Shown: piece after piece, positions 1 through 34,927 of the stretch
Layout: the number at the start of each line of letters is the position of its first letter
Position numbering within the stretch: the stretch's first letter is position 1
Virus record (IMG/VR): IMGVR_UViG_3300033388_005484
Span: 1-35,706 of that record
DNA length: 35,706 bases
Strand: one strand, 5' to 3'
Source of the DNA: a virus
Position numbers and translations under genes: made by a program
The notes under the pieces: model-generated
What the model was told of the DNA's origin: nothing
Database searches by the model: none
What the model saw: the letters and a program-made list of their open reading frames with translations, nothing else

Positions 1-75
1 CTGAGGGCTTCACTTACGGACTCCAACGACTCCAATCATTCCTACGAAGCAACCGAGAGAGAGTTAACCATGGGG
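1..75. repeat. Imperfect terminal repeat, left copy
   Basis: The first 75 bases match the last 75 bases of the window (35632-35706) at 66 of 75 positions. Both copies are in the same reading frame of a gpG-like virion morphogenesis gene. The final 18 bases are identical. The simplest reading is that the genome is circular or circularly permuted and the record was opened here, with the two ends coming from slightly different sequence variants. Confidence 0.85.
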
Positions 76-291
76 TCCACCAGACGGGAGAACGGGTGGA
101 ACCTCGGACTGCTGCACCAGCGCGGTACTTCCAGAATGCCTGCCAGGCCGCCAGCTACTCTTACCCAACCTGAAAAGAGCCGTTATGTGGGGGTCCTCCA
201 CGAGTACCTTTGGGAGGACCGGATACCTTGGTGGATTGAACGCGAGATGAAGGAACTGGACCGCGAATTCCGGCGGAAAGTATCGGAGTAG
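1..291 (+). CDS. Phage virion morphogenesis protein (Mu gpG / P2 gpS type), C-terminal part
   Basis: The reading frame is open from base 1 and stops at 289-291, so the gene enters from outside the window. Its first 25 codons correspond to the last 25 codons of the partial gene at 35362-35706. Joined through that overlap the protein would be about 187 residues, a normal size for the virion morphogenesis (tail completion) family that sits at the head-tail joint. The tail of the protein is rich in Arg, Trp and Glu. An ATG at 70 is only an internal Met codon of this frame, not the true start. Assignment rests mainly on the other half of the gene and on its position between head and tail genes. 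Confidence 0.75.
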   Translation: MRASLTDSNDSNHSYEATERELTMGSTRRENGWNLGLLHQRGTSRMPARPPATLTQPEKSRYVGVLHEYLWEDRIPWWIEREMKELDREFRRKVSE

Positions 292-302
292 GGGGGTAGG
301 TC

Positions 303-779
303 ATGGAGCAATTAGTAGATAAAGCAGTGGCTCTTCTCAAAACCAACATGGCGGACGAGCTTGCAGCCATAGATACTGAGCGGAATGTTGGCGGGGTGGA
401 CGTAACCACTCCAGCGCCCGGCGATGCCGCCTATTATATCCATGACCTTGCCGGCAACTTCAGGCCGGAGTTTCCCTCCTGTACGGTCTTTGGCCGTCGG
501 ACTACCAACGTCAAGGACGATTACGGAGACTATCAGTTGGAACATCACCTGGAAATAGAGGTATACCAGGCGAACAGCAGCCAGGAGGAGCTGGCGCGGC
601 AGGTATTTCGATATGCCGAAGCCGTTAAGCGCATCCTGGCTGACCCTGCCAACTGGGCGGGGGTGGCACATGACCCTGTTTTTGGCGGGGCCTTTTACTC
701 GAATGTCGTGCCGGACGAACAGGGGTTTCTTCGGGCATGTCGTGTGAATATTTCCGTCAAAACCTTAGAGGCCAAGTGA
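303..779 (+). CDS. Putative tail terminator / head-tail joining protein
   Basis: A 158-residue soluble protein with a G-rich ribosome binding site just before the ATG. It lies between the gpG-like gene and the tail tube gene, where long-tailed phages usually encode the tail terminator that caps the tail and joins it to the head. The sequence has an N-terminal helix followed by alternating hydrophobic strands (around residues 75-90 and 140-155), in line with the small alpha/beta fold of such proteins. I do not recognise a precise family; the role is inferred from order and size. Confidence 0.5.
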   Translation: MEQLVDKAVALLKTNMADELAAIDTERNVGGVDVTTPAPGDAAYYIHDLAGNFRPEFPSCTVFGRRTTNVKDDYGDYQLEHHLEIEVYQANSSQEELARQVFRYAEAVKRILADPANWAGVAHDPVFGGAFYSNVVPDEQGFLRACRVNISVKTLEAK

Positions 780-789
780 GGTGATGATT

Positions 790-966
790 ATGGCCGACGA
801 GTATATCTACCGCGGGCCTAGCGATGTGTTCCGCATAGGCGAAAAAGAACTGGCAAGAGACGGCCGGCCGGTAGAGCTGACCGATAAAGAGGTCAAGGCC
901 ATTAAGGCCGTAGAGGGACACCGTTTCGAGAAGGTGCAGAGCACCAGTAAGAAGGGAGGCAAATAA
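790..966 (+). CDS. Small virion-operon protein of unknown function
   Basis: A 58-residue protein starting at ATG 790; GAGGTG at 778-783 is at the right distance, which favours this start over the in-frame GTG 781 and ATG 784. It has a short strand-rich N-terminus, a stretch around residues 25-45 reading like a small helical unit, and a Lys/Gly-rich end. Small proteins of this kind, placed before the tail tube gene, are common in Firmicute siphophages, but their job is not established. Confidence 0.6.
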   Translation: MADEYIYRGPSDVFRIGEKELARDGRPVELTDKEVKAIKAVEGHRFEKVQSTSKKGGK

Positions 967-969
967 GCG

Positions 970-1521
970 ATGCCTTTGGATGTCAACAAAATCCATGTCG
1001 GACCGGGCAAGTTGACACTTGATGCCGGTGGGGCCAATCCCATTACGTTTGAGGCCACCGAAGAAGGCGGGCTGCTAAGTTACAGCAGGTCCTCGGAGCC
1101 TATTGAGATTGATGAAGCTATTGGCGCTGTGGGCTACTACATCACTGGGGAAGAATGCTACTTTGAGGTAGTGGCTAAGGAGACCGACGCCCAACTGCTC
1201 AAAGCGGCATTCGGGCATGGAACCATCACGACTACAGCTCCGGGCGTGGGAGTTAAAGGGAGCGACTTGCTGGAGTTCGGCGGAACATCTCAGGTAACCG
1301 AACACACCCTCCAGTACATCGCACCCAGGCGGCATAACCCGAACCTGAATATCCAGATTGACCTCTACAAGGTTGTGGCCATGACAGAGGAAGAACTGCC
1401 CTTCAAGAAAGCCGGCCAAACGATGTATCGCTGTCGGTTCCAGGCAGTTCAGGACTTGAGCAAGACAGAAGGAAAGCGCCTTGGCTTTATTCTGATTGAG
1501 ACCGCCGAAGCAACAGGATAA
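970..1521 (+). CDS. Major tail tube protein
   Basis: A 183-residue, strand-rich protein immediately before the paired tail assembly chaperones and the tape measure, the standard position of the tail tube gene. Repeated beta strands run through the whole length, and the N-terminus describes a value-plus-property pattern often seen in tail tube proteins. It forms the stacked rings of the non-contractile tail. There is no contractile sheath gene anywhere in the window, so this supports a siphovirus-type tail despite the Mu-type head. Confidence 0.7.
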   Translation: MPLDVNKIHVGPGKLTLDAGGANPITFEATEEGGLLSYSRSSEPIEIDEAIGAVGYYITGEECYFEVVAKETDAQLLKAAFGHGTITTTAPGVGVKGSDLLEFGGTSQVTEHTLQYIAPRRHNPNLNIQIDLYKVVAMTEEELPFKKAGQTMYRCRFQAVQDLSKTEGKRLGFILIETAEATG

Positions 1522-1538
1522 ACCAGGGGGGATAAGTG

Positions 1539-1961
1539 ATGAGTGAACGTACAGCTGATGATATTCTCAGCCGCAAAGGGACGACCATCACCCTGGGCGG
1601 CGAGAGATTTGAGGTCCGGCCCCTGGTCATAAAGAAGCACAGGAAGTTCATGAACCGCCTGCTCGAAGAGGTCCGCTCCTTGATGGTGACGGACATTTCC
1701 GTAGACAACATGGAGGCCGTCCTGGGAGTGGTTCAGGGATTCATGGACAGTACCCTAATCGAGTTAGTGGGCCTTGGAATTCCTGAGTTCGCCAGTAAGA
1801 GCCAGGACTGGATAGAGGAGGTCTGCACCATGGCCGAACTACAGGAAGCGCTGGGAGTTATCATCAAGGTTAACTTCCCGTGGCTAACAAATTTTCAGAG
1901 CCTCCTCAATCTGGCGATAGCCGGGAGCCAGATTGGGACGAAGGGGACATCTACGACCTGA
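1539..1961 (+). CDS. Tail assembly chaperone, short product (G-like)
   Basis: A 140-residue protein starting at ATG 1539, with a G-rich binding site at about 1525-1532. It lies between tail tube and tape measure. A canonical slippery heptamer at 1889-1895 near its 3' end allows some ribosomes to leave this frame and make a longer product. In lambda-type phages the short chaperone (gpG) and the frameshifted one (gpGT) together coat the tape measure and recruit tail tube subunits. The last 22 codons, after the slip site, are unique to the short form. Confidence 0.75.
   Translation: MSERTADDILSRKGTTITLGGERFEVRPLVIKKHRKFMNRLLEEVRSLMVTDISVDNMEAVLGVVQGFMDSTLIELVGLGIPEFASKSQDWIEEVCTMAELQEALGVIIKVNFPWLTNFQSLLNLAIAGSQIGTKGTSTT
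1889..1937 (+). promoter_or_regulatory. Programmed -1 ribosomal frameshift signal
   Basis: Slippery heptamer A AAT TTT (1889-1895) is in the zero frame of the short chaperone and fits the X XXY YYZ rule exactly. Nine bases later begins an 11-bp stem, 1905-1915 paired with 1927-1937, with one U-G pair and an 11-base loop. Slipping back one base puts the ribosome in the open frame that runs to 2170. Heptamer, spacing, stem and the open -1 frame all agree, and the position between tail tube and tape measure is where this mechanism is conserved. Confidence 0.88.
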
Positions 1962-2170
1962 TAATGCGCGAATATCCCGGTTATACGGTTCGCCGTATTG
2001 AAAATGAGTTGACCTGGGAAATGGTAGGCCTGTTGCTCAAAAAGATTTCCCGCCGCCACGGAGTGAAAGAAACCGGTCTCGACCTGACTGGGGCGGTGGA
2101 TATCGAGGAAGTGGCTGACATCCCTGGGTTCGGAATCAAGAAGGTGGTTAAGAATGTCTCTGGCCGGTGA
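1892..2170 (+). CDS. Tail assembly chaperone, frameshift extension (T part of GT-like fusion)
   Basis: This frame is open across the slip site and has no ribosome binding site of its own near 1880, so it is best read as the C-terminal part of a fusion. Slipping at 1889-1895 would make a protein of about 210 residues: 119 from the short chaperone and about 91 from here. The extension is acidic at first, then basic and hydrophobic, and its stop overlaps the tape measure start at 2154, so the genes are tightly coupled. Confidence 0.75.
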   Translation, partial: FSEPPQSGDSREPDWDEGDIYDLIMREYPGYTVRRIENELTWEMVGLLLKKISRRHGVKETGLDLTGAVDIEEVADIPGFGIKKVVKNVSGR

Positions 2171-4136
2171 CCTGCTGATAAGAATACTGGGCCAAAGCGA
2201 AGGCGCACAGAACGCCATCAACGAAGTGAAGGGCGGATTAAAAGGGCTGCTCAGTCCAGCCAACTTGGCTAAGTCCGCCCTTCGTGGCATTGGCGCCGCA
2301 GCTTCAGCAGGGCTGGCCATGGGTGTTAAGTCTACTAACGAGCTGAACCAGGTAATGTCCCAGTTCTCAGCCCAGACAGGTGTAGTCGGTGAAGAAGCGG
2401 ACAAGGTACGGGCTAAAGTCCAGGAGCTGTATAAGGTCAACGAGGATGGTTATAGCGACCTGGCTGGCACTATAGCCGAGCTGATGACACAGTTCAAAGC
2501 CAGCGCAGATGTGGCCGGCGAAGTTACGCAGGCCTACCTCGACTATGCCAAGGTAACCGGTCAGGATGACGTTCAGGCCACTAAGGCCATTGCCGAAGTG
2601 TCCAAGGCCTGGAACCTAAGCATTGAGGACAGCGTAAGCCTGATGGACAAACTGAAAGCGGTCCAGCAGGAGACGGGGGCCGACCTGAACCAGCTGCAGC
2701 AGTATCTAAAGCGCAGTGCCGGGGCGATGCAATCGCTGGGCATGAGCCTCGATGAAGGCATCGCCATGTTCGGGGCCTTCGCCAAGGCTGGTATCGAGCC
2801 GCAGCAGGCCATGACGGCGTTCAATACTGCTCTTACCAAGGTCAAGTCGCCCAAAGAACTTAAAGACCTGATAAAAGATATTGAGGCCACAAAAGACCCG
2901 ACCGAGGCAGCGGCCAAGGCCCAGGAGCTGTTTGGGGTCCGGGCGGGCCCGGAATTGGCGCGGGCCATCCAGACCGGCAAGCTCAACATCGATGAGTTAA
3001 TGCGAACCATCCAGAACAGTGAGGGCGTGGTCGCTCAAGCTTCAGCAACCTATGATGATAACTTCAATGTCAAGTTTGCTCTGTTCAGGAAGCGCATCAG
3101 CGGAACAGTGCAAGAACTGACCGACCGGTTCGGGCCAGCCATAACCACCACGTCCAGCCTGGCTATGGGTATGGGGTCGCTATTCCCGAACCTGGGCGCA
3201 ACAGTGGCTGGGGCATTTAGCACGATGGGCCAGGCCGCTAAGGGGTTCTTTGGCCTGTTAATGGCCAACCCCATCATTCTGATAATCACAGCGATTATCG
3301 GCGCCGTTATCCTGCTCTACAAAGCATGGACCGGGAACTGGTTCGGCATCAGGGATAAAACCAAGGCGGCAATCGAGTTCCTAGTCAACCTCTTTAACTC
3401 GCTCAAGCAGAAAGTCGGGGAGATATCGTGGGAGGGTATCAAGAACACGGCAGCCAAGGCGTGGCAGGGCATAAAAGACTTCCTCGGAGGGATTTGGGAG
3501 GCCATAAAATATGCCACCTTTGGAGATGCTGCTGACCTACAAGAAGGCTTATGGAACATCTGGGTAAACATCCAGGAAGCCGTGGAAAGAGTTTGGAACG
3601 GAATTAAACGGTTCTTGAGGGAGACGTGGGAAAACCTGGTCAGGAGTATAGTCCAGAAGGCGCGCAGCCTGAAGGATGATATCATTGCCCGGCTGGAAGA
3701 GGTATGGTCTTACATCAAGGCGATACCGGCTAAGGCGTATAACTGGGGGCGCGATATAATCAATGGGCTATGGAGCGGGGTTAAGAACGTGTTTGGCAAC
3801 CTCAAGAACTGGTTCCAAGACAACGTTGTGGGTCTTTTGAACCGGCTTAACCCCTTTGCCCGTCACTCTCCTTCACTGGTAGAGCAGGTCAAGGCCGGTG
3901 TGGCTGAAATCAACCGGCTTTATAAAGGTTTAGACCTTAGCCCTGTCTTATCGGTGACGCGCCCTGTTCAACAGCCAGCCATGGCCACAGCAGGGGGACC
4001 CGTGTATCTATATGGACCGCTGGTGCGCGTAGAAAAGATGGAAGTGCGGTCCAAGGAAGACGTGGACGCCGTAAGCGAGGCCTTGTGGAGCAAAGCGGAA
4101 CAAGCCCTGCGCGGAGAAGGCCTCATTAGGAGGTGA
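2154..4136 (+). CDS. Tail tape measure protein
   Basis: A 660-residue protein, the longest gene of the first tail block. The N-terminal 300 residues are long helices typical of the TP901-type tape measure family. A strong membrane-like segment lies near residues 368-390, as expected of a protein that helps DNA cross the host membrane. The middle part (about 395-570) is rich in Trp and contains amphipathic repeats. The start overlaps the end of the chaperone extension and follows AAGGTGG. It sets tail length and is presumably packed by the two chaperones. Confidence 0.9.
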   Translation: MSLAGDLLIRILGQSEGAQNAINEVKGGLKGLLSPANLAKSALRGIGAAASAGLAMGVKSTNELNQVMSQFSAQTGVVGEEADKVRAKVQELYKVNEDGYSDLAGTIAELMTQFKASADVAGEVTQAYLDYAKVTGQDDVQATKAIAEVSKAWNLSIEDSVSLMDKLKAVQQETGADLNQLQQYLKRSAGAMQSLGMSLDEGIAMFGAFAKAGIEPQQAMTAFNTALTKVKSPKELKDLIKDIEATKDPTEAAAKAQELFGVRAGPELARAIQTGKLNIDELMRTIQNSEGVVAQASATYDDNFNVKFALFRKRISGTVQELTDRFGPAITTTSSLAMGMGSLFPNLGATVAGAFSTMGQAAKGFFGLLMANPIILIITAIIGAVILLYKAWTGNWFGIRDKTKAAIEFLVNLFNSLKQKVGEISWEGIKNTAAKAWQGIKDFLGGIWEAIKYATFGDAADLQEGLWNIWVNIQEAVERVWNGIKRFLRETWENLVRSIVQKARSLKDDIIARLEEVWSYIKAIPAKAYNWGRDIINGLWSGVKNVFGNLKNWFQDNVVGLLNRLNPFARHSPSLVEQVKAGVAEINRLYKGLDLSPVLSVTRPVQQPAMATAGGPVYLYGPLVRVEKMEVRSKEDVDAVSEALWSKAEQALRGEGLIRR

Positions 4137-4142
4137 TGAGAT

Positions 4143-4523
4143 ATGGCCCTGCATTTTTACTTTGACGAAGCGATGACCAACATGATATCCGAAGGTGATA
4201 TGTCCAACCCGGATACTGCAACCGGCTCTGGGACGACCGGTTTCACTGAAGAGAAAGCCATCTACGTGGGCAATGACAGCGCAGCCAAACGGTATGAGAA
4301 CGTGGAAGTCACGGCAGTTAATGATGACCCCAACGTAGATATCCAGTACGCGCCGGATAACGCGGGAGCACCGGGAGCTTACGGAGATACCTTGAACGTT
4401 GGCAACATAGCCGCTTCGGGAGTGGTGAAAATCTGGCGGAAGGTAATTGTGGCCGCAGGACAGGCCAGCCAGAACCGGGTGGACATCAAGCACCGTGTTA
4501 CCGGGACCGAATACGCGGTCTAA
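4143..4523 (+). CDS. Virion-operon protein of unknown function
   Basis: A 126-residue, strand-rich and acidic protein with an AGGAGGTGAT binding site. It follows the tape measure by six bases. The middle is rich in Gly, Ser, Thr and Asn, as in tail surface or baseplate appendage proteins. In most siphophages the distal tail gene comes straight after the tape measure; here this gene, two more small genes and the DGR are inserted first. I do not recognise the family; it may be a structural partner of the variable protein. Confidence 0.5.
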   Translation: MALHFYFDEAMTNMISEGDMSNPDTATGSGTTGFTEEKAIYVGNDSAAKRYENVEVTAVNDDPNVDIQYAPDNAGAPGAYGDTLNVGNIAASGVVKIWRKVIVAAGQASQNRVDIKHRVTGTEYAV

Positions 4524-4542
4524 ATTTGGGAGGTGAACCATT

Positions 4543-5079
4543 ATGGCAAACTTGCCGCTGCCAACTGATATCAATGGAGTGCCGTATCTGGCCAACCAGG
4601 ACGGCAATGGAGACCTGGCTGTACCGTTTGAGTTGTTCCGGAAGGTTGGAGGGCTGTACCTACCAGTTGACCCCGACCAACCCCTGCCCGTCCTAGAGAC
4701 TGACCGACTTTACTATCTGACAGCGGACCATGACAGCATTGCGGTTGGGGCTGTGGCTAAAGGAGAATTGTCTACGCCTTTTGATAGCGTGACGAGCGGG
4801 GGAACCTCTCGGGAAATCCTTTGTGCTGGTTTCAACGCGCTTCTACTGCACCATGTGATTACCGGCGCTCCAGCAACAGGCGGCTATGCAACCATAACTA
4901 TGAGCCCCAAGAGCGGTGGCACCTTCGTTGCTCACCACGGAGACGGGCAGAACATCAAAGGAGCAGCAGTCACTGCAAGCTACATCAGCTTGTTCCGAGG
5001 CATTCTTGACTACATCAAAGTGGTCCTGACCGTAACCGATGGGACACATACGGTGATTGTCCAGCCGCTCAATATCTAA
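4543..5079 (+). CDS. Virion-operon protein of unknown function (possible adhesin carrier)
   Basis: A 178-residue protein with GGGAGGTG before its ATG. The second half (about residues 80-178) is a run of short beta strands rich in Gly, Thr and Ala, like a small jelly-roll or Ig-like tail domain. It stands two genes upstream of the DGR variable protein in the same operon with short gaps, so it may anchor or accompany that protein in the virion. Function is inferred from position only. Confidence 0.45.
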   Translation: MANLPLPTDINGVPYLANQDGNGDLAVPFELFRKVGGLYLPVDPDQPLPVLETDRLYYLTADHDSIAVGAVAKGELSTPFDSVTSGGTSREILCAGFNALLLHHVITGAPATGGYATITMSPKSGGTFVAHHGDGQNIKGAAVTASYISLFRGILDYIKVVLTVTDGTHTVIVQPLNI

Positions 5080-5095
5080 GAGAGGTGATGAGCGA

Positions 5096-5395
5096 ATGGC
5101 TGTTAAGCTGCAAGCAACTGTAGTGGAGACTATTGAAAACCAAGGCCATCAAGGCACGGTTTTGAACGTGAAATTAATGGATGGGGCCCAGCAAATAGCT
5201 GAAAGCACGTGGCCGGCAACATATGGCTGGGCTGACTTAAGCCCGGCAGAAAAACAGGCTCACGTTTTGAACGATGCTAAAGACAGCCTTTTAAGGCCTA
5301 ACTTGCAGGACCGACTGAAGATAGACTACCAAGAAGATGGCCCCGAGAAAATCCTGGTTGACGGCCAGGCAGTAGTAGTGGAGGTGATTGAGTAA
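5096..5395 (+). CDS. Small protein preceding the DGR variable protein
   Basis: A 99-residue protein beginning at ATG 5096, eight bases after AGAGGTG. Its stop codon overlaps the start of the variable protein (TAATG at 5393-5397), so the two are translationally coupled. The sequence is strand-rich and acidic, with no membrane segment. Tight coupling suggests a chaperone, adaptor or partner for the variable protein, but no family is recognised. Confidence 0.5.
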   Translation: MAVKLQATVVETIENQGHQGTVLNVKLMDGAQQIAESTWPATYGWADLSPAEKQAHVLNDAKDSLLRPNLQDRLKIDYQEDGPEKILVDGQAVVVEVIE

Positions 5396-6564
5396 TGAGG
5401 AAAGCTGTAGAGCGTATCTTCATCGACGATGCTGGCAACCCGTCTCACATGGTTTATATTCCGCCATTTAAGTATACTGCCGGTGGCAATACCCGCATCC
5501 TGGGCGGTTTCTGGATGGACAAATATCCATGTTCGCATCCCAATGCTACAGCAACCGACCGGGGAACTACTACGCCAAACAGCCCGGGGACGACCGGGGC
5601 AGTATCCCAGCCACGCAAAGTACCTTGGACCGACATTGATTGGAATAACGCGAAGGTAGCCTGCCAGAACAGGACATTTAACGGCGAACCTTGTCACTTA
5701 ACCACGCCAGAGGAATGGGCGGCGGTGGCCTTACTTGCAAAGCTGATGGGAACCATTCCGCATGGCAATAACAGCTATGGTAAGGATGCAAACTTTCCGG
5801 ATGAAGTCGCAGAACCAGACAGCTATTTCGATAGCGTATATACCCCGGGGAGTGCGAACTGGCCCTACTACGGCAACCTGACGGCCAGAACCCTGGTCGG
5901 GACTGGCCCTAGGACCTGGGCACACAACCATGACCCGTCAGGGGTGTTTGACCTTAACGGGACGGTATGGGAATGGATTGACTTGTCACCCATCGATGGA
6001 GCCATCACTATAAACGGAACCGATTACCTGATTTATCCTACTCAAGGAGGACGCCTGACATTAGCCCAAAACATTGACGCCGTAGTAGACACTATCCCGT
6101 TCGTTGCCGGTAGTTTACTTGGAGTAGACTTTCCGGCTAATGGAACCATCTTCATTGGAACCGAGCAAATCACCTATACTGGCTACGATACAGTTAATAA
6201 CCAGTTCACTGGATGCACTCGAGGGGCTAATGGAACCACCGCAGCTGCCCATAATGCAAATGACCCCATATTCTGGAGCCCTGGCGGCCAAAACTCTGGC
6301 CAGCGGATTCTGACCATGAGAACTGAACTTGACCTGATGCACCTTGCTATACCAGAAAGCGTAGATGCAAATGGAGCAGAAGAGTGGGGCAAAGATGGTT
6401 ACTGGCATTACCGCTCTGATACTGGCTGGGCGGGGACGCGCGCGGCTAGCCGCGGCGGGCACTGGGGCACCGGCTCCTACGCCGGGGTCTTCGCCTTGAG
6501 CTGCTACGTTGTGCCGTCGTACGTGAACAGCGGCGTCGGGTTTCGCGCCTGCAAGTCAATCTGA
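5395..6564 (+). CDS. DGR variable protein: FGE-sulfatase / C-type lectin fold tail adhesin
   Basis: A 389-residue protein whose last 40 residues are encoded by the variable repeat. Residues 1-200 and 300-389 resemble the formylglycine-generating-enzyme-like C-type lectin fold used by many DGR target proteins, including a DLNG-x-VWEW motif near residues 187-196. Residues about 205-300 look like an inserted beta domain with a phage-structural motif (GTEQITYTG and TRGANGTTAAAH). Residues 356, 358, 359, 362, 369, 371, 372, 376, 380 and 381 differ from the template through template adenines only. Its place in the tail operon suggests that it is a virion receptor-binding protein. Confidence 0.85.
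   Translation: MRKAVERIFIDDAGNPSHMVYIPPFKYTAGGNTRILGGFWMDKYPCSHPNATATDRGTTTPNSPGTTGAVSQPRKVPWTDIDWNNAKVACQNRTFNGEPCHLTTPEEWAAVALLAKLMGTIPHGNNSYGKDANFPDEVAEPDSYFDSVYTPGSANWPYYGNLTARTLVGTGPRTWAHNHDPSGVFDLNGTVWEWIDLSPIDGAITINGTDYLIYPTQGGRLTLAQNIDAVVDTIPFVAGSLLGVDFPANGTIFIGTEQITYTGYDTVNNQFTGCTRGANGTTAAAHNANDPIFWSPGGQNSGQRILTMRTELDLMHLAIPESVDANGAEEWGKDGYWHYRSDTGWAGTRAASRGGHWGTGSYAGVFALSCYVVPSYVNSGVGFRACKSI
6438..6557 (+). repeat. DGR variable repeat (VR)
   Basis: A 120-bp repeat matching 6964-7083 with a fixed offset of 526 bases and no gaps. There are 14 mismatches: 13 fall on adenines of the template (23 adenines lie upstream of the invariant block) and one is T to G at 6449. The last 22 bases (6536-6557) are identical and should act as the initiation-of-homology block. 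Changes fall mostly in AAC/AAT codons, giving His, Gly, Thr, Tyr, Ser or Val in place of Asn. The repeat ends seven bases before the end of the coding region. Confidence 0.95.
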
Positions 6565-6592
6565 TATCTGGGGCGTGATAATCTGCTATCTG
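6558..6592 (+). repeat. 13-bp near-perfect direct repeat just 3' of VR
   Basis: AATCTGATATCTG at 6558-6570 recurs as AATCTGCTATCTG at 6580-6592, 22 bases apart with one difference. It starts directly where template-variable repeat identity ends and covers the stop codon of the variable protein. It may be a trace of past recombination or may help define the 3' end of retrohoming; no hairpin is evident here. Confidence 0.6.
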
Positions 6593-6605
6593 AAGAGAAG
6601 GGCAA

Positions 6606-6941
6606 ATGATTAAGGACCTTATCATTTACCAGAAGGTGTACGACCTGATTCTCTACGTCTTTCCGATAGTGAACAAATTTCCCAAAAGCCAGCGGTTCGT
6701 GCTGGGCCAGCAGATACAGAACACGATGGTAGATATCGCGAAGCTTATCGTTGAAGCCAATAAATCGCGCAACAAGACTAGGTTACTGTTTCAGCTAGAC
6801 GTAGAGCTGGAGAAGTTGAGGCTCCTCCTGAGACTGGCGAAGGATATGAAGTTTATGGGGCTTAAGCAATACGAAATTACGGCCGGCCATCTATCTGAGA
6901 TAGGCAAGCTTTTGGGAGGATGGATGAAGGCCAGCCGGTAA
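6606..6941 (+). CDS. avd: DGR accessory variability determinant (Avd)
   Basis: A 111-residue, almost entirely helical and basic protein, typical in size and composition for Avd, the barrel-shaped pentamer of four-helix bundles that binds the reverse transcriptase and template RNA and is needed for retrohoming. It sits between the variable protein and the template repeat, the usual place. GAGAAGGG precedes the ATG. The gene stops 22 bases before the template repeat, so template RNA and avd mRNA probably share a transcript. Confidence 0.88.
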   Translation: MIKDLIIYQKVYDLILYVFPIVNKFPKSQRFVLGQQIQNTMVDIAKLIVEANKSRNKTRLLFQLDVELEKLRLLLRLAKDMKFMGLKQYEITAGHLSEIGKLLGGWMKASR

Positions 6942-6963
6942 GTTTGGGGTTAAGGTTCATACG

Positions 6964-7083
6964 GCGCGCGGCTATCCGCGGCGGGAACTGGAACAACGGC
7001 TCCAACGCCGGGGTCTTCGCCTTGAACTGCAACAATGTGCCGTCGAACGTGAACAGCAACATCGGGTTTCGCGCCTGCAAGTC
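6964..7083 (+). ncRNA. DGR template repeat (TR)
   Basis: Non-coding 120-bp template for mutagenic reverse transcription. In the frame matching the variable protein it holds ten AAC or AAT codons; changing A in AAY reaches fifteen amino acids and never a stop, a hallmark of DGR templates. The frame happens to stay open from 6920 to 7135, but that reading has no independent support and is not annotated as a gene. It lies between avd and the reverse transcriptase as in most DGRs. Confidence 0.95.
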
Positions 7084-7193
7084 CAGGTTTTGCCTGACCC
7101 TGGTAGATTACGGTCTGCCGGGCCGTGCATTTTGACTTGGAACCTTAATCCCTGTCGATGAAGCAGCCGGCAGAGGCAAAACACATGGACAGG

Positions 7194-7220
7194 CAGGGGA
7201 TAGGCTAACGCCTACCCCTG
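7194..7220 (+). ncRNA. Stem-loop in the TR-RT spacer
   Basis: CAGGGG-A-TAGGC pairs with GCCTA-CCCCTG around a TAAC loop: 11 base pairs with one bulged A at 7200. It sits in the 168-base spacer (7084-7251) between the template repeat and the reverse transcriptase. In the Bordetella phage DGR this spacer is a structured part of the template RNA that primes cDNA synthesis, so this hairpin may be the equivalent; it could also simply limit transcription into rt. Confidence 0.6.
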
Positions 7221-7251
7221 CTGCCTTATAAACACAAGGAGGCGAGAAACC

Positions 7252-8292
7252 GTTAAGACCTTTAATAACCTATATCCAAAAATCTATGACTTTCAAAACC
7301 TCCACCTGGCCTATTTGAAGGCCCGGAAAGGAAAGAGGTACCGGCCGGAGGTGCTCAGGTTCAGCCAGTACCTTGAGGAGAACCTAATCCAGCTGCAAAA
7401 CGAGCTAATCTGGAAAACCTACCGGACCGGGCGCTATCACATGTTCTATGTGTACGAGCCAAAACAGCGGCTGGTGGCGGCCCTGCCGTTTAAGGACCGG
7501 GTTGCACAGCATGCTTTATGCAACATCATCGAACCGCTGTTCGAGGCAACCTTTATTTACGACAGTTATGCCTGCCGGGCGGGGAAAGGAACACATGCTG
7601 GAGCCGATCGGCTGACGAAGTGGCTCAGAAGATGCCATCAAGCCTGGGGGAAGGTATACATCTTGAAAGCTGATGTGACCAAGTATTTCCCCAGTGTGGA
7701 CCACCAAATACTGCTGAGCATCCTGGGCCGGAAGATAAAGTGCCGGGACACCATGGACATGATGGCTGAAATCCTGGCTAGTTCGGCAGACCCTAACGAC
7801 CCGCGGCCGAAGGGGATACCGGTCGGAAACCTCACCAGCCAGCTATGGGCAAACGTTTATTTGAACGAGATGGACTACTTTGTTAAACACACGTTGAGGG
7901 AAAAGTTTTACCTCCGGTATATGGACGATTTCGTGATACTGCACCACGACAAGAAACACTTACGGCAAGCACGGAGAGAAATCGAGGGCTTTTTGTGGGA
8001 CGTGCTTGCCCTTAAGCTCAACCCCAAGACCAGTATTTACCCGGAGGACCAGGGCGTGGATTTTTTGGGCTACCGCATCTGGCGGACGCATCGCCTGGTA
8101 CGGAAACAAAGCATTAAGCGGATGAAGCGAAAGCTCAAGAAGTTTCAGGAAGGCTACAGGGAAGGGCGCTATACCCGGGAGCAAATAGAACAAACCCTAG
8201 CTAGCTGGCTGGGGCATGTGGGACATGCCAATTCCTATAACTTACGCAAGAAGCTGTTTGGCGACTTTGTTCTAAAGAAAGGTGACGGGTGA
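7252..8292 (+). CDS. rt: DGR reverse transcriptase (start codon uncertain, GTT at the expected place)
   Basis: Retron/group II-like reverse transcriptase of the DGR clade. It has the catalytic YMDD box (about 221-224 from base 7252), the IPVGNLTSQ motif where other reverse transcriptases have QGxxxSP, and a short C-terminal thumb. The first canonical start is TTG 7315, but the frame is open upstream and encodes the conserved N-terminus ending in LHLAYLKARKGKR. A perfect AAGGAGG (7236-7242) lies nine bases before GTT 7252, exactly where the start should be. The true start is either GTT by non-canonical initiation, a mutated GTG, or TTG 7315 with a shorter N-terminus. It overlaps the next gene by four bases. 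Confidence 0.93.
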   Translation, partial: VKTFNNLYPKIYDFQNLHLAYLKARKGKRYRPEVLRFSQYLEENLIQLQNELIWKTYRTGRYHMFYVYEPKQRLVAALPFKDRVAQHALCNIIEPLFEATFIYDSYACRAGKGTHAGADRLTKWLRRCHQAWGKVYILKADVTKYFPSVDHQILLSILGRKIKCRDTMDMMAEILASSADPNDPRPKGIPVGNLTSQLWANVYLNEMDYFVKHTLREKFYLRYMDDFVILHHDKKHLRQARREIEGFLWDVLALKLNPKTSIYPEDQGVDFLGYRIWRTHRLVRKQSIKRMKRKLKKFQEGYREGRYTREQIEQTLASWLGHVGHANSYNLRKKLFGDFVLKKGDG

Positions 8293-9377
8293 GGCTTATG
8301 GGACTGTATTCTGTGACCATGCCGGGGGCATATACCGACCACCGTCACCGGCTGGCGGACATGAAACAAATTATCACGGCCGCTCACAGCCAGGAGGCCG
8401 ACACCAAACAGGTTATCACTGCTGATTACCTGGCTGATGCAGATACAGAATGGGTGCTGTTTATCTCCCCGCTCTATTCGGCGGCTATGCCTGGCCTTGG
8501 AGTGACTCAACGGGTAAGGCATATTGACACCAAACAAGTCCTTTGGGTCCCTGTGAGCGCCGAAGGTGACACTAAGCAGATTATTTGGTGGGATTACGTT
8601 ATCGACGCCGATACGATGCAAATCATCTCGCCCGGCCAGCCTGCGTTCGCGTTTGCCGGTAAGCCCGTGCAGGATTATGGCATTATGCTCCTTAGGGGAA
8701 CCAGACGAGAGCTGATACCGGGTCAGCGGTCAAACATTGAGGTTATCCCAGGTCGGCATGGGGCGCTTGACCTTGGAGCCGAATTGGAGCCGCGGCAGTT
8801 TGAGCTCAGATGTGCAGTCAAAGCAAGCACCAGGTCGGAACTGCTGCACCGCATGAGGCAAATAGCGGCGCTTTTCAACCCTGCCAATGGAGTCCAACCG
8901 CTTGCGTTCGACAGCGAGCCGGCCAAGACATATTATGCCCGCGTTAATTCGGTCGTCGACCTGCAGAGCATCTTGACCTATGGGGTTTTTGATTTGGTGT
9001 TTATCGCTCCAGACCCGTTCGCCTACGGCCAGGAGGTTACAGCCAACGTTAATGACGGTGATAGCGTAACCCTGGCCAACGCCGGAACCTGGTCAACGCC
9101 GCTTACCATCACCATGCAGGCCTCCGGGCAGGATGTTGTAGACCCGGCGGTAACTGTAGGCGGCAAACAGATTAAATATACCGGAACCCTGGCCGTCGGC
9201 TCAACGCTCACCATCGAGACGGATAAGATGACGGCGGTCCTGGACGGCCAGAACGCGCTGGCTAATATCACGGGCGAGTTCATGATGCTCCAGCCGGGCG
9301 ATAGCCAGGCGACGCCTTCTAAAGCCAGCGGCGGGACCTTAACGGTAACCTTCACGTTTAAGCCGAGGTGGTTATGA
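8289..9377 (+). CDS. Distal tail protein (Dit-like) with repeated DTKQ extension
   Basis: A 362-residue protein. Residues about 130-362 match the siphovirus distal tail (Dit) pattern: an N-terminal strand-rich ring domain followed by a second beta domain, ending in FTFKPRWL. The first 120 residues are an added segment with repeats of the form D-T/M-K/M-Q-I/V-I/L, about six copies. Dit forms the hub below the tail tube. Start may be GTG 8289 or ATG 8298. It overlaps the reverse transcriptase stop, showing that the DGR is transcribed as part of the tail operon. Confidence 0.78.
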   Translation: MRLMGLYSVTMPGAYTDHRHRLADMKQIITAAHSQEADTKQVITADYLADADTEWVLFISPLYSAAMPGLGVTQRVRHIDTKQVLWVPVSAEGDTKQIIWWDYVIDADTMQIISPGQPAFAFAGKPVQDYGIMLLRGTRRELIPGQRSNIEVIPGRHGALDLGAELEPRQFELRCAVKASTRSELLHRMRQIAALFNPANGVQPLAFDSEPAKTYYARVNSVVDLQSILTYGVFDLVFIAPDPFAYGQEVTANVNDGDSVTLANAGTWSTPLTITMQASGQDVVDPAVTVGGKQIKYTGTLAVGSTLTIETDKMTAVLDGQNALANITGEFMMLQPGDSQATPSKASGGTLTVTFTFKPRWL

Positions 9378-26128: not shown

Positions 26129-27574
26129 ATGGAAATAGCAAAAATCGCAATCGAGAAAATTAACCCGGCTCCTTATAACCCACGGCAAGACCTTAAGCCA
26201 GGGGACCCGGATTATGAAAAGCTGCGAAAATCCCTCGAGGAATTCGACTGTGTAGAGCCGCTTGTTTGGAATAAGCGGACAGGGCATCTAGTGGGGGGGC
26301 ATCAGAGGTTAAAAATCCTCAAGGCCCGCGGGGACCGAGAGGTGATGGTCTCCGTGGTTGACCTGCCGCTCGACAAAGAAAAGGCACTAAACCTCGCCCT
26401 GAACAAAATCCAGGGCGATTGGGATATGCCCAAATTGAAAGACCTGCTGGAGGAGCTGGATACAGGGGCCTTTGATATCGAGATTACTGGCTTTGACGAG
26501 GAAGAGATAGAGGACTTAATGACCCAATATGGGACACCGCCCACAGAGGAAGAGAGCGCGGAGGACAACTTTGATGCCAAGGAAGCTCTTGAACAGATAG
26601 CTACGCCACGAATCCAACCGGGTGAGGCCTGGCAGCTGGGCGACCACCGGTTGATATGTGGGGATGCAAAGGACTCAGCTATCTGGAATAAGGTGCTTGG
26701 TGGCCAACTAGCTGACTTAGTGGTAACATCACCGCCGTACAATGTGGGCGTGAAATATAGGTCGTACAAAGACAAGACGGCCAAAGATGAGTACCTGGGA
26801 CTTATTGAGGCTGTAGCCCTAAACGTAGTTAAGCACCTCAGCCCCGGTAGGTTTGTGGCGTGGAATGTGGGGGTATCGCCAGAGTCATATCCTCACTACC
26901 ATGTGGTCATATTGGAAAGCTGTGGCCTGGAGTTTTACCGGCAAATTGTTTGGGAAAAGGCTGGGGTGCCCTATCCCATATTCCAAACCACGCGCCGAGC
27001 AAAAAAGGCGCGGCATTACAAGCCCAACTATAAACACGAGATGATTTACATTTTTCAGGGCCCGGGAGAGCCGGATCTAGCTGAGGCGGAGGACATTGAG
27101 ACTGATTGCCCGTTGTGTGAAGGTAGTGGCAAAGTTTTCGGATATCAGGTGCCCAGCGTTCATGGGATGATATTACTTTGCACCAAAGATGAGCCTGAAT
27201 TAGGAGAAAAAGTGGCTCCCGATAACAGGTACGCAAATGACGTTTGGAAGATAACTCAAAGCATGGCTACGGTCGACCTGCCGACGTTGGGGACGAAATC
27301 CACGGGCCTTGAGAAGAATGGCAAAAAGTCACACATGGTAAAAGCTCACCCCGCGGCGTACCCGGTGGAGCTGCCAAGAGCATTGATAGGGTTCTTAACC
27401 GGTGAGGGGGAATGTGTGGTAGACCCATTTTGTGGTGTCGGTACAACGATAGTCGCTGCTGAGAAAATGGGGCGTAGGGCATATGGGATAGAGTTGGACC
27501 CTCTTTACTGTGAACTGGCTATGATGCGGTGGGAGAAGCTCACCGGGGAACAGGCGGTGAGGGTGGATGGCTAG
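26129..27574 (+). CDS. ParB-like nuclease domain fused to DNA methyltransferase
   Basis: A 481-residue protein. Residues about 1-95 are a ParB/Sulfiredoxin-type domain with GGHQRLKIL. Residues about 160-480 are a beta-class DNA methyltransferase: DLVVTSPPYN (motif IV), later VDPFCGVGTT (motif I) and a GIELDP tail, which fits N6-adenine or N4-cytosine methylation. An inserted CPLCEGSG...LLC pair around residues 330-355 looks like a small zinc knuckle. Likely protects phage DNA from host restriction or marks DNA for packaging, given its place before terS. Confidence 0.85.
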   Translation: MEIAKIAIEKINPAPYNPRQDLKPGDPDYEKLRKSLEEFDCVEPLVWNKRTGHLVGGHQRLKILKARGDREVMVSVVDLPLDKEKALNLALNKIQGDWDMPKLKDLLEELDTGAFDIEITGFDEEEIEDLMTQYGTPPTEEESAEDNFDAKEALEQIATPRIQPGEAWQLGDHRLICGDAKDSAIWNKVLGGQLADLVVTSPPYNVGVKYRSYKDKTAKDEYLGLIEAVALNVVKHLSPGRFVAWNVGVSPESYPHYHVVILESCGLEFYRQIVWEKAGVPYPIFQTTRRAKKARHYKPNYKHEMIYIFQGPGEPDLAEAEDIETDCPLCEGSGKVFGYQVPSVHGMILLCTKDEPELGEKVAPDNRYANDVWKITQSMATVDLPTLGTKSTGLEKNGKKSHMVKAHPAAYPVELPRALIGFLTGEGECVVDPFCGVGTTIVAAEKMGRRAYGIELDPLYCELAMMRWEKLTGEQAVRVDG

Positions 27575-29516: not shown

Positions 29517-30287
29517 ATGGCTAATGTAATCAAACTGCAGGAAAAGAAACGTCTCAAGCGGGGCGAGATAGGCGCTATCAACCGGAACCTGTTCGGCCAG
29601 CTGGCGGACAGTGAATACCTGCGCGAGCTGACCTGGCCGAATAACATCAAGGTTTACGATAAGATGCGCCGGTCAGATGCACAGGTCCAGGCTTTGCTTT
29701 TAGTGCTGGAGCTGCCCATCCGCTCGGCCAGATGGTACGTGGAGCCTTACAGCAACAGCTCCAAAGACAAGCAGATAGCAGAGTTCATCGAGGAAAACCT
29801 GTTCAGCGGCCCGCCCTTGGGGATGACCGTTCACTGGGACGATTTCCTCCGGTTGGCTTTGACCATGTTCGCCTTCGGGCATTCGATATTTGAGAAAGTC
29901 TACGAGGTGGATGATGACGGCTACGTTAAATGGCGGAAGTTTGCCGAACGGCCCCAAGATACCATCCATGAGTTCTACTATGACGAGGCCGGCGGACCGG
30001 AATACATCGAGCAGTGGCTGTCGGCCAAAGGCAAGGTAAAGATACCTATCGATGACCTTTTAGTGTTCACATACCGCAAGGAAAAGGGGGACCTCCGGGG
30101 CATATCGGTGCTGCGGCCTGTATATAAGCACTGGTTCATCAAGGATTTTTTGTATCGCATTACCAACATCGGGCTTGAGCGGAACCTGGTCGGAACACCC
30201 GTTTTAACCCTGCCGGAGCAAACCCAAGACGGGGACGATGAAGTGGCTCAAGGCATTGTCACTTGGGTGGGTCCTGGACCTCTTTGA
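29517..30287 (+). CDS. Portal protein, N-terminal half (DUF935 / Mu gp29), frame interrupted
   Basis: 256 residues matching the first half of a Mu gp29-type portal (LPIRSARWYVEPYS, PKDTI-like RPQDTIHEFYYDEAGG, RKEKGDLRGISVLRPVYKHW). The frame then meets a stop at 30287. The remaining portal sequence continues in the next frame from about 30265. Removing one G from GGG at 30265-30267 or 30269-30271 would restore one long portal. Either a sequence error, a real mutation, or a frameshift used to make a fusion. Confidence 0.85.
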   Translation: MANVIKLQEKKRLKRGEIGAINRNLFGQLADSEYLRELTWPNNIKVYDKMRRSDAQVQALLLVLELPIRSARWYVEPYSNSSKDKQIAEFIEENLFSGPPLGMTVHWDDFLRLALTMFAFGHSIFEKVYEVDDDGYVKWRKFAERPQDTIHEFYYDEAGGPEYIEQWLSAKGKVKIPIDDLLVFTYRKEKGDLRGISVLRPVYKHWFIKDFLYRITNIGLERNLVGTPVLTLPEQTQDGDDEVAQGIVTWVGPGPL

Positions 30288-31578
30288 GGGCAAGCGTAAC
30301 ATTAGCGCGGAAGTCATGTCTTACATCGAGCACCACGACCTGATGATAGTCCGGGCAGGCCTGGCGCAGTTCTTGAATCTCGGCTCCAAGGAAGTCGGGT
30401 CCTTTGCTTTGTCGAAAGACCAGAGCGACCTCTTTCTGATGTCGCTCAATGCATCGGCAAACTACGTGGCCAACACCATCAACAGTTATGCTATCCCGCA
30501 GCTGGTAAATTACAACTGGGACGTAGAAGGCTACCCGAAACTGAAGCATGACCCTATTGGGGGGCAGGACCATTCCAAGTTTATTAATGGGGTCAAGGCC
30601 CTGGTGGAGGGGAAGGTCATCGTTCCTGACACCGACCTTGAAGGTTTTATGCGTGACTTGATGGGCCTTCCTGAAAAGGCCAAAGATGCTAATCAGCCTA
30701 CCGGTCAAGCCAACCAGGTTCAGGCAAGCGAATGCGGTTGCAGACGGGCACACGAGCGGGTAACGCTCGCAGAAGGGAAGCGCAAGTGGCGGCGGGACCT
30801 TACGACCTACGAGAAGCGGATTAATCTAGCCGAAATCGAGCGGAAATGGGATACCGCCGAGAAGCAGTTTGTGGACCAGGGCAAAGAGCTGGGCCAAAAG
30901 CAGATAGCCGCACTGGTGCAGGAGATACAAAAGCTGGCCGAAGCTGGCCAATGGAATAAGATAGCCGAGTTGGAAGTTAAATACCAAGGTGAGGTGGCCA
31001 AGTTCATCAAGGCCTTTCTCGCGGACTTGGTAGACTTCGGGGCGGACCAGGCAGCAGAGGAGCTGAAGATAGACAAGCCCGGCATTTCCCGGGAGACGCG
31101 GCAGCAACTGGATGCGCGGGCCGCTTTGGTAGCAGGGCTCATGGCCAGCCGGTTAAAAGCCAGGGTTGGGTTTGAGTTTTTGAACCAGCTGGCAGGGGGG
31201 GCCACGGTCAAGGAAGCTGCCTACCAGGCAAAGCAAGCCGGGGAAAGCGTTTTGGAAACAGACCTGGCCGGGCATGCCAGCGCACAGGTTAATTACGCGG
31301 TCAACAAAGGCCGCGACCTGGCGGCAGAAAAGGCCAAGGCCCAACTAGCCCAGTATTCGGCAATCCTCGACGAGCGGGTTTGCCCACTCTGTGAGTGGTT
31401 GGATGGCAGGATAATCGAGATGGACAACCCGGATTTTGACCGGTTTACTCCACCCATCCACAATAACTGCCGTTGCATATGGGCTTACGTCTTGCCTGAT
31501 GAGGAGCCACAGCCAGAAGTGACCTGGGAGACACCGCCGCCAGACCTGGTGGAGCAATTCGGGAACCTGGTGGTCTAG
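30238..31578 (+). CDS. Portal C-terminal half fused to Mu gpF-like minor head protein
   Basis: 446 residues with no good ribosome binding site at ATG 30238, so translation likely comes from upstream through the frame offset. Residues about 20-115 complete the DUF935 portal (RNISAEVMSYIEHHDLM, NASANYVANTINSYAIPQL). Residues about 170-446 are a MuF/SPP1 gp7-type protein ending in CPLCEWLDG and PPIHNNCRC, a Cys/His site of that family. A portal-MuF polyprotein is known in some phages; MuF is packed into the head and can be ejected with DNA. Confidence 0.82.
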   Translation: MKWLKALSLGWVLDLFEGKRNISAEVMSYIEHHDLMIVRAGLAQFLNLGSKEVGSFALSKDQSDLFLMSLNASANYVANTINSYAIPQLVNYNWDVEGYPKLKHDPIGGQDHSKFINGVKALVEGKVIVPDTDLEGFMRDLMGLPEKAKDANQPTGQANQVQASECGCRRAHERVTLAEGKRKWRRDLTTYEKRINLAEIERKWDTAEKQFVDQGKELGQKQIAALVQEIQKLAEAGQWNKIAELEVKYQGEVAKFIKAFLADLVDFGADQAAEELKIDKPGISRETRQQLDARAALVAGLMASRLKARVGFEFLNQLAGGATVKEAAYQAKQAGESVLETDLAGHASAQVNYAVNKGRDLAAEKAKAQLAQYSAILDERVCPLCEWLDGRIIEMDNPDFDRFTPPIHNNCRCIWAYVLPDEEPQPEVTWETPPPDLVEQFGNLVV

Positions 31579-33291: not shown

Positions 33292-33741
33292 ATGGCGGCT
33301 CTTACTAGCGAGAGAAACGTCAAGAAGAAAGACGGGAAGTTGATTTCCTTCCCGGTGGCCGCTAACACAAAGATATATAAAGGCGGTTTGGTAATGCTGG
33401 ATGGTGGGTACGCCAAACCGGCGGCCGGTAAAGCCAATGGGGTTGCAAATTCCATCTTCGTTGGAGTAGCTTATGAAACCGTTGACAATAGCACCGGTGC
33501 GAATGGCGACCTGTCCATCCGAGTGGAAACCGAGGGCACCTTCGAGTACGCTGGCGACGGCGTAGCGGCTGATGTTGGGAAGGTTGTCTATGTTGAAGAC
33601 GACCAGACGGTCAGCGTAACGGCCAGTACTACTGCTGGAGAAGAAAACCTAAAATGCGGCATCCTTATAGCCGTACCGAGTGCTGGAATTAACCGGATTA
33701 GAATTGACAATCAAGTCGGCGAAGTAGCCGTGACGGTCTAA
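33292..33741 (+). CDS. Head decoration protein (DUF2190-like)
   Basis: A 149-residue, strand-rich protein between scaffold and major capsid, AAAGGAGG upstream. The small barrel pattern with a lysine-rich start matches DUF2190-type capsid cement proteins that stabilise the expanded head. Confidence 0.7.
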   Translation: MAALTSERNVKKKDGKLISFPVAANTKIYKGGLVMLDGGYAKPAAGKANGVANSIFVGVAYETVDNSTGANGDLSIRVETEGTFEYAGDGVAADVGKVVYVEDDQTVSVTASTTAGEENLKCGILIAVPSAGINRIRIDNQVGEVAVTV

Positions 33742-33761
33742 GAAAGGGGGAGAGATAAACA

Positions 33762-34655
33762 ATGGCTGTAGTGACTAGTGATTTCCTGGCGGGGCTATAC
33801 AGGTCCCTGCAGGCACTGTATAAAGACACCTACGAGAAAACCGAAGTGGACCACCCGAAGATTGCCATGGAAGTTCCCTCGACTACTGGCGAAAACCAGT
33901 ACGAGTGGCTCGGCGAAGTCCCGGGCATGAAAGAATGGGTCGACGAAAGGACCCTCGAGGACCTCAAGGCCTGGGATTACACCATCAAGAACAAAGACTG
34001 GGAGTCCACCATCGCTGTGGACCGAAACACCATCGAGGACGACCAGCTGGGCATCATTCGCCCACGGGTAATGTCTCTGGCTGTGGCGGCCAAAACTCAC
34101 CCGGACGAGCTGGTGTTCAGCCTGCTGGCCCAGGGGTTCAGCCAGACCTGTTTCGATGGGCAGTACTTCTTCGATACCGACCACCCATTGGCCGATGGAA
34201 GCACCCAATCCAATAAAATTACTCTGCCTCTTGATGCTACCGGCCTGAAGACTGCTCTGGCTACGCTGCGCAGGCTCAAGGGCTGGACAGGAAGGTCGCT
34301 CAACTTGAAGGCGACCCACCTCGTCGTACCGCCCGAGCTCGAGTGGACGGCAAGAGAACTGCTCCAGGCCGAGCGGGATGCCAGCGGAGCAACCAACATA
34401 CTCCGTGGAACCATTCCGAACATCATCGTTTCGCCGTATCTAACGGACACCAACAATTGGTTTGTCCTGGATGCTTCCAAGCCCGTGAAACCGCTCATCC
34501 TCCAGATGCGGAAGCGGCCTGAATTCGTATCCCTGGACGACCCGAAACAGAGCGAGACGGTGTTCATGCGGAAGAAGTACCTCTATGGCGTAGATGCCCG
34601 CTACAACGTGGGCTACGGGCTATACCAGCTGGCTGTCGGCTCTGAAGTCGCGTAA
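33762..34655 (+). CDS. Major capsid protein (Mu gpT-like)
   Basis: A 297-residue protein of the Mu major head subunit family: YEWLGEVPGMKEW, LEDLKAWDYTIKNKDWE, FFDTDHPL, and a late LYGVDARYNVGYG. It has the HK97-like capsid fold by family. It follows the decoration gene by 20 bases. Confidence 0.9.
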   Translation: MAVVTSDFLAGLYRSLQALYKDTYEKTEVDHPKIAMEVPSTTGENQYEWLGEVPGMKEWVDERTLEDLKAWDYTIKNKDWESTIAVDRNTIEDDQLGIIRPRVMSLAVAAKTHPDELVFSLLAQGFSQTCFDGQYFFDTDHPLADGSTQSNKITLPLDATGLKTALATLRRLKGWTGRSLNLKATHLVVPPELEWTARELLQAERDASGATNILRGTIPNIIVSPYLTDTNNWFVLDASKPVKPLILQMRKRPEFVSLDDPKQSETVFMRKKYLYGVDARYNVGYGLYQLAVGSEVA

Positions 34656-34672
34656 CGGGGGGGTGAGGGTTG

Positions 34673-34915
34673 ATGCCTGAATATCGGGTCAAGGCCCGCC
34701 AGGCTCGTGGGTTCTGGCGGGCCGGGACCTTCTTTCCCGGCAACGAAAGCAAGGAAATCAATAGCGAGGACTACACTGAGGAACAGCTGGCGGCCATCCT
34801 GGGTGAAAGCATGTTAGTAGTCGAAGAAGTGCCGGAGCCCAAGGCCAAAGAGGAACCTCCGGAGCCTAAAAAGCCGGAGAAGTCAAGCTCCAAAAAGAAG
34901 TCCGAGAAGAAATAG
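34673..34915 (+). CDS. Small head-associated protein with Lys/Pro/Glu tail
   Basis: An 80-residue protein from ATG 34673. The first 45 residues are a short strand-helix unit (RVKARQARGFWRAG); the rest is Pro, Glu and Lys repeats. Lies between capsid and gp36-like genes. Function unknown. Confidence 0.6.
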   Translation: MPEYRVKARQARGFWRAGTFFPGNESKEINSEDYTEEQLAAILGESMLVVEEVPEPKAKEEPPEPKKPEKSSSKKKSEKK

Positions 34916-34927
34916 GCGGTGTGAGAC

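What the first reader, a model, noticed from the sequence alone, without database searches (positions are those of the whole stretch)
5395..8292. Complete diversity-generating retroelement inside the phage tail operon
Seen directly: a 120-bp template repeat (6964-7083) and variable repeat (6438-6557) at the end of a lectin-fold tail protein, with 13 of 14 mismatches at template adenines, ten AAY codons in the template, an Avd-like gene and a reverse transcriptase with YMDD and the DGR-type VGNLTSQ motif. Established: DGRs retarget phage receptor proteins by adenine mutagenesis. Inference: this phage diversifies host attachment.
Basis: partly seen in the sequence, partly recalled or inferred. 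Interest (0 to 1): 0.92.

Follow-up and report, generated by a model that had tools for sequence, protein, structure and literature searches.

The report
Phage tail-gene hypermutation cassette (DGR)
This virus carries a complete, ordinary-looking diversity-generating retroelement that rewrites the tip of one of its tail-region proteins by copying a template with errors at adenines; unusually, its target site lacks the usual DNA hairpin and instead carries a repeated seven-base motif that recurs at the same place in many related cassettes.

Summary
Template (6964-7083) and variable repeat (6438-6557) are 120 nt each and differ at 14 sites, 13 of them at template A (p = 7e-10). All 25 template adenines sit at codon positions 1 or 2, and there are ten AAY codons. 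The Avd and reverse transcriptase (RT) genes match solved BPP-1 proteins, and the RT falls with DGR RTs, apart from group II introns (100/100). The order target-Avd-TR-RT is the BPP-1 order. It is a new member of a known kind; host-attachment diversification is likely but not shown.

What goes further: (1) The target site has no GC hairpin, the element BPP-1 needs after VR. Instead VR runs into ATCTG heptads, which follow VR in most related DGRs (70 ATCTG after VR, 0 after TR, 2.2 expected, 33 loci); I found no description in the papers searched. The motif alone is not DGR-specific. (2) The TR-RT spacer is a covarying structured RNA with no Rfam match; a model built here finds it in 31 of 47 sources. 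(3) The RT has no ATG, GTG or TTG start ahead of its conserved N-terminus (GTT here). (4) The cassette lies between tape measure and Dit genes. Activity was not testable.

The parts
2154..4136 (+). tape measure protein gene (upstream neighbour)
   Evidence: PhageMin_Tail 7.5e-16; PHROG tape measure 1.8e-48
4143..5395 (+). three small genes of unknown function (4143-4523, 4543-5079, 5057-5395) between tape measure and DGR target; kept in order in relative L028
   Evidence: tblastn 78/59/44% in L028; no Pfam match
5395..6564 (+). DGR target gene, 389 aa; FGE/C-type-lectin-like, with one inserted small beta domain at about residues 217-293
6438..6557 (+). variable repeat (VR)
6558..6595 (+). heptad array after VR, ATCTG at 6559, 6566, 6581 and 6588, overlapping the target stop codon (TGA 6562-6564); no hairpin
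6606..6941 (+). avd, accessory variability determinant
   Evidence: bAvd 4.4e-32; PDB 4dwl and 8ub7 chain B
6964..7083 (+). template repeat (TR); ten AAY codons, all A at codon positions 1 and 2
7084..7251 (+). TR-RT spacer, structured RNA; covariance-model core 7092-7193
   Evidence: fold z -4.4; covariation; model R1 match 71.6 bits
7236..7254 (+). ribosome-binding-like AAGGAGG (7236-7242) and GTT (7252-7254) at the position where relatives have ATG/TTG/GTG
7252..8292 (+). DGR reverse transcriptase (conserved part from 7270; first canonical in-frame start is TTG 7315)
   Evidence: RVT_1 4.4e-22; phrog_1423 1.2e-149; tree; alignment A1
8289..9377 (+). distal tail protein Dit (downstream neighbour)
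   Evidence: Sipho_tail 8.4e-18; PHROG Dit 1.2e-38

Best explanation
A diversity-generating retroelement in the tail operon of a probably temperate siphovirus-like phage. The TR-containing RNA (avd end, TR and a folded spacer) is bound by RT and Avd and copied into cDNA with errors at adenines. The cDNA replaces VR, the 3' end of a lectin-like tail-operon protein, changing up to about 14 residues (about 5e14 possible sequences). The likely benefit is altered binding to host surfaces. Shown here: the anatomy, the adenine pattern, codon placement, RT and Avd homology, and the conserved spacer RNA structure. Inferred: that it is active, that the target sits on the virion and binds hosts, and that in this sub-group the heptad array after VR serves target recognition where a hairpin is missing.
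For: TR/VR with 13 of 14 mismatches at A, p 7e-10. Template adenines only at codon positions 1 and 2. RT among DGR RTs; nearest solved RT is 8ub7. Avd. Same gene order and A-biased TR/VR in BPP-1, BalMu-1, Lagaffe, ZX4290 and a Tepidanaerobacteraceae prophage. Spacer covariation: 93% of cells paired, 62 double-change cells against 18 shuffled. Conserved placement before Dit in L028.
Against: No canonical RT start codon ahead of the conserved N-terminus. No hairpin after VR, which BPP-1 needs for efficient homing (PMC3240598). A frame break in the portal gene shows either sequence errors or decay elsewhere in this record. No direct evidence of ongoing variation.
Confidence: 0.93

Rival explanations
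1. A decayed DGR: once active, now silent because the RT start codon is lost and the hairpin is gone.
For: GTT instead of ATG/GTG/TTG at the start position, with an in-frame stop upstream; no hairpin.
Against: RT, Avd and target frames are all open and catalytic motifs intact. Relatives with sound elements also use or appear to use ATA or ATT at the same place (L017, L149). Six other loci lack the hairpin, and those checked keep intact TR/VR pairs. VR already departs from TR at half of its adenines.
Confidence: 0.12
2. The heptad array after VR is incidental slippage repeat, not a DGR part.
For: ATCTG heptamer arrays occur in many phage contigs with no DGR: 27 of 32 contigs found by a blind scan had none. 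BPP-1, ANMV-1, cr55_1, vir525 and SC_8 lack it.
Against: 48 of 49 ATCTG clusters in 2.0 Mb of held sequence lie at a DGR VR end, nearly all in the sense of the target gene (many are copies of the same loci, and the loci were chosen mostly for DGRs). In 33 distinct loci, 70 ATCTG after VR, none after TR, 2.2 expected. Lag-7 periodicity 0.389 against 0.261 +/- 0.013.
Confidence: 0.25
3. The target is not a receptor-binding protein but another variable virion or secreted lectin, for example one binding mucus or particles.
For: It lies between tape measure and Dit rather than after Tal at the tail tip.
Against: It sits in the tail operon next to tail-tip genes, as in other phage DGRs.
Confidence: 0.2

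Closest known systems
Bordetella phage BPP-1 DGR (mtd-avd-TR-brt)
   Same: Same gene order and strand, A-specific TR/VR mismatches, Avd and RT homologues, VR at the target's 3' end
   Different: RT 42% identical; no GC hairpin after VR; heptad array present; siphovirus-like tail context between tape measure and Dit
Bacillus phage BalMu-1 and Faecalibacterium phage Lagaffe DGRs
   Same: FGE/lectin-like target, order target-avd-TR-RT, ATCTG heptads after VR
   Different: RT 51% and 42-43%; BalMu-1 has a GC hairpin with GGTA loop after the heptads; DGR lies at the end of a contractile-tail module
IMG/VR contig L028 (IMGVR_UViG_3300005443_000005)
   Same: Same three upstream genes, target (69%), avd, RT (69%), then Dit and Tal; five heptads, no hairpin
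   Different: Different TR sequence; ATT or distant TTG as RT start; Dit only 37% identical
Tepidanaerobacteraceae prophage DGR (L017)
   Same: RT 64%, same order, heptads, structured spacer, non-canonical (ATA) RT start
   Different: Has a GC hairpin with GATA loop; baseplate (contractile) context

Membership tests
Diversity-generating retroelement | Near-identical TR and VR with mismatches concentrated at template adenines | tested here: met
   13 of 14 at A, p 7e-10
Diversity-generating retroelement | RT of the DGR clade | tested here: met
   Tree against group II intron RTs, 100/100 split, BPP-1 Brt on the same side; retrons not included
Diversity-generating retroelement | VR at the 3' end of a target ORF with lectin-type fold | tested here: met
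   VR ends 7 nt before the end of the ORF; profile match to 5vf4, 4e-26; fold itself not modelled well
Diversity-generating retroelement | Avd-like accessory protein (common, not universal) | tested here: met
   bAvd 4.4e-32; PDB 4dwl, 8ub7
Diversity-generating retroelement | Structured RNA spacer 3' of TR | tested here: met
   z -4.4; covariation above all 500 shuffles; model R1
Diversity-generating retroelement | GC hairpin/cruciform with GRNA loop downstream of VR (nearly always present, PMC3240598; not defining) | tested here: not met
   Best imperfect stem no better than shuffles (24 of 100 as good)
Diversity-generating retroelement | Mutagenic homing in vivo | not testable with these tools
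   No reads; no near-identical VR in the viral collection
Group II intron | RT of the group II clade, with intron RNA | tested here: not met
   Group II RTs split off at 100/100; no Rfam match in the window
Retron | RT of the retron clade with msr-msd RNA | not tested
   No retron RT was put in the tree; no Rfam match in the window

The most novel reading that the evidence does not exclude
A large lineage of phage DGRs marks its target site with an iteron-like array of about four or five seven-base units (consensus WAATCTG) immediately after VR. A sub-group including this phage uses that array without the hairpin that BPP-1 requires, so target recognition works by a different DNA signal.
Probability: 0.45. 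Interest if true: 0.65.

Novelty: new member of a known kind. Interest (0 to 1): 0.4.

Why it matters
As a DGR it is ordinary: tens of thousands are catalogued (PMC8144416). It matters for three testable leads. First, how the cDNA finds VR when the hairpin is absent, with a conserved heptad array as the candidate signal. Second, a covariance model of the spacer RNA that can annotate DGR RNAs, which Rfam did not detect here. Third, weak or non-canonical start codons on several DGR RT genes, a possible brake on mutagenesis.

Tried and rejected
Second VR elsewhere in the record: none. Population variants by an A-masked pattern in IMG/VR: none. Close phage relatives by DNA: only the TR of a Vibrio phage, 82%. 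AlphaFold model of the target from 8 sequences: mean pLDDT 39, only the inserted domain has fair confidence, not used for a fold search. Heptads as copies of, or pairing partners for, the TR RNA: neither ATCTG nor CAGAT is enriched there (11 against 10.2 and 13 against 14.7 expected). Heptads as a DGR-specific signature: rejected, a blind scan finds mostly non-DGR tandem repeats. Hairpin loss as one clean clade: clustered on the tree (2 of 500 shuffles as low) but one origin is neither shown nor excluded. An independent set of 12 named phages gave 7 TR/VR pairs and no full ATCTG array; nd12 has related heptads, VP585 and ACA1 have degenerate ones by eye.

Full report
Observation. Fourteen positions differ and thirteen are template adenines; the chance of at least 13 of 14 falling on 25 adenines of 120 is 7e-10. 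Read in the frame of the target gene, all 25 template adenines lie at codon positions 1 (14) or 2 (11), none at position 3; there are ten AAY codons, nine of them changed in VR, and only one codon could mutate to a stop. No other VR exists in the 35.7-kb record.

Genes. The order on one strand is target (5395-6564), avd (6606-6941), TR, spacer, RT (conserved from 7270 to the stop at 8292). Avd matches Pfam bAvd at 4e-32 and BPP-1 Avd structures. The RT matches the PHROG reverse transcriptase family at 1e-149, the PDB RT 8ub7 at 5e-72, and group II RTs far less well. In a maximum-likelihood tree of 38 RTs the four group II intron RTs are separated at 100/100, and the window lies among DGR RTs that include BPP-1.

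Target. The 389-aa protein is FGE/C-type-lectin-like: its family profile hits PDB 5vf4 at 4e-26, including the C-terminal stretch, and PHROG 2889 at 1e-44. A small beta domain (about residues 217-293) is inserted before the VR part. From the alignments and translations I read one copy here and in L028, two in L029, L030, L017 and L032, and none in BalMu-1. An AlphaFold run gave a poor model and was not used.

Context. The record is an IMG/VR virus. A contig with 96% identical capsid protein (L038) runs across the two ends of the window, so the genome is probably complete and circularly permuted. It has a Mu-like portal and capsid, a siphovirus tail (tape measure, Dit, Tal), an amidase and a serine integrase. 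The DGR lies between tape measure and Dit. L028 keeps the same block (three small genes, target, avd, TR, RT, Dit, Tal), whereas in L042 the tape measure and Dit matches lie about 0.4 kb apart with no DGR match between. Other related DGRs sit next to baseplate and tail genes of contractile-type modules.

Related elements. Every related TR/VR pair examined shows the same adenine bias, and target-avd-TR-RT order was seen in the named phages. RT identity ranges from 69% (L028) and 64% (prophage L017) down to 42% (BPP-1).

Spacer RNA. The 171 nt after TR fold 4.4 standard deviations better than shuffles. Across 15 relatives the consensus structure keeps 93% of cells paired; 16 of 24 pairs show changes on both sides; 62 double-change cells compare with 18 in shuffles; and shifting the partners by one column drops pairing to 45-48%. 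A covariance model matches 31 of 47 sources, of which only the window was in its training alignment, although L147 is nearly the same sequence as training member L031; each matching source has one match. Rfam gave no match in the window. In BPP-1 the spacer is known to fold and recruit the RT-Avd complex (PMC12875486), so this extends a known part rather than adding a new one.

Target site. In BPP-1 a GC hairpin or cruciform downstream of VR is needed for efficient homing and was described as nearly always present, with GRNA loops and a flexible 4-34 bp spacer (PMC3240598). Most relatives here have it. The window does not: its best imperfect stem is no better than shuffles. L028, L029, L030, L162, L219 and L185 also gave none.

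Heptad array. VR runs directly into AATCTGA-TATCTGG-GGCGTGA-TAATCTG-CTATCTG (6558-6592). In 33 distinct DGR loci there are 70 ATCTG within 66 nt after VR, none after TR, and 2.2 expected. Lag-7 self-similarity after VR is 0.389 against 0.261 +/- 0.013 for shuffles and 0.271 after TR. In 2.0 Mb of held sequence 48 of 49 clusters of three or more ATCTG lie at a DGR target gene's 3' end (44 within 2.5 kb of a detected RT, four in loci where no RT was detected); this set is redundant and enriched for DGRs. As a counter-test, a blind scan of IMG/VR for a four-unit pattern returned 32 contigs, of which only five are DGRs; the rest are unrelated heptamer tandem repeats, so the motif alone is no signature. 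The phages VP585 and ACA1 have degenerate heptads by eye, and ANMV-1, cr55_1, vir525 and SC_8 and BPP-1 have none. The array is not copied from, nor complementary to, the TR RNA. Full-text searches found no description, but only open papers were searched.

RT start. In the window no ATG, GTG or TTG lies between the upstream in-frame stop and the conserved RT N-terminus. GTT stands behind AAGGAGG where relatives have ATG, TTG or GTG. L017 has ATA and L149 ATT with no canonical alternative (in L149 within 30 codons); L028, L032, L126 and L127 are ambiguous; seven others use TTG. Weak initiation to limit RT is an attractive but untested reading. A base error cannot be excluded, since the portal gene of this record is split by a frame break that relatives such as L039 appear not to have.

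Verdict. A real and intact-looking DGR, a new member of a well-known kind, with likely but unproven attachment diversification. The target-site array, the hairpin-free sub-group, the covarying spacer and the RT starts are the parts worth following.

Noticed in passing
6558-6595; L028, L029, L030, L162, L017, L022, L023 and others: Array of ATCTG heptads directly after VR, conserved in related DGRs, absent after TR; not described in the papers searched.
   Followed up: yes
6558-6605: No GC hairpin after VR, unlike BPP-1 and most relatives; six further loci also lack it.
   Followed up: yes
7236-7270; L017 about 7980; L149: RT genes with non-canonical start codons (GTT, ATA, ATT) and frequent TTG at the same position in relatives; possible expression brake.
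   Followed up: partly
7084-7251: Covarying spacer RNA downstream of TR, no Rfam match in the window; covariance model R1 made here.
   Followed up: yes
29517-31575: Portal gene split into two overlapping frames, while in relatives such as L039 the two parts appear to run in one frame; sequencing error or real frameshift.
   Followed up: partly
target residues 217-293 (within 5395-6564): Small beta domain inserted in the lectin-like target, copy number 0, 1 or 2 among relatives; similar domains occur in large phage structural proteins.
   Followed up: partly
TR 6975 / VR 6449; L017 TR/VR: The only non-adenine mismatch, T in TR and G in VR, recurs at the corresponding place in the L017 DGR (64% RT identity).
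   Followed up: no
L199, L203, L211, L213, L216, L229 and others: Unrelated phage contigs carry long ATCTG heptamer tandem repeats without any DGR.
   Followed up: no
1-4530 and 33610-35706: Contig L038 (about 90-94% DNA identity) spans the junction of the window's ends, so the record is probably a circularly permuted complete genome.
   Followed up: partly
26129-27574: Single ORF matching ParB-like partition proteins in its N-terminal part and DNA methyltransferases further on.
   Followed up: no
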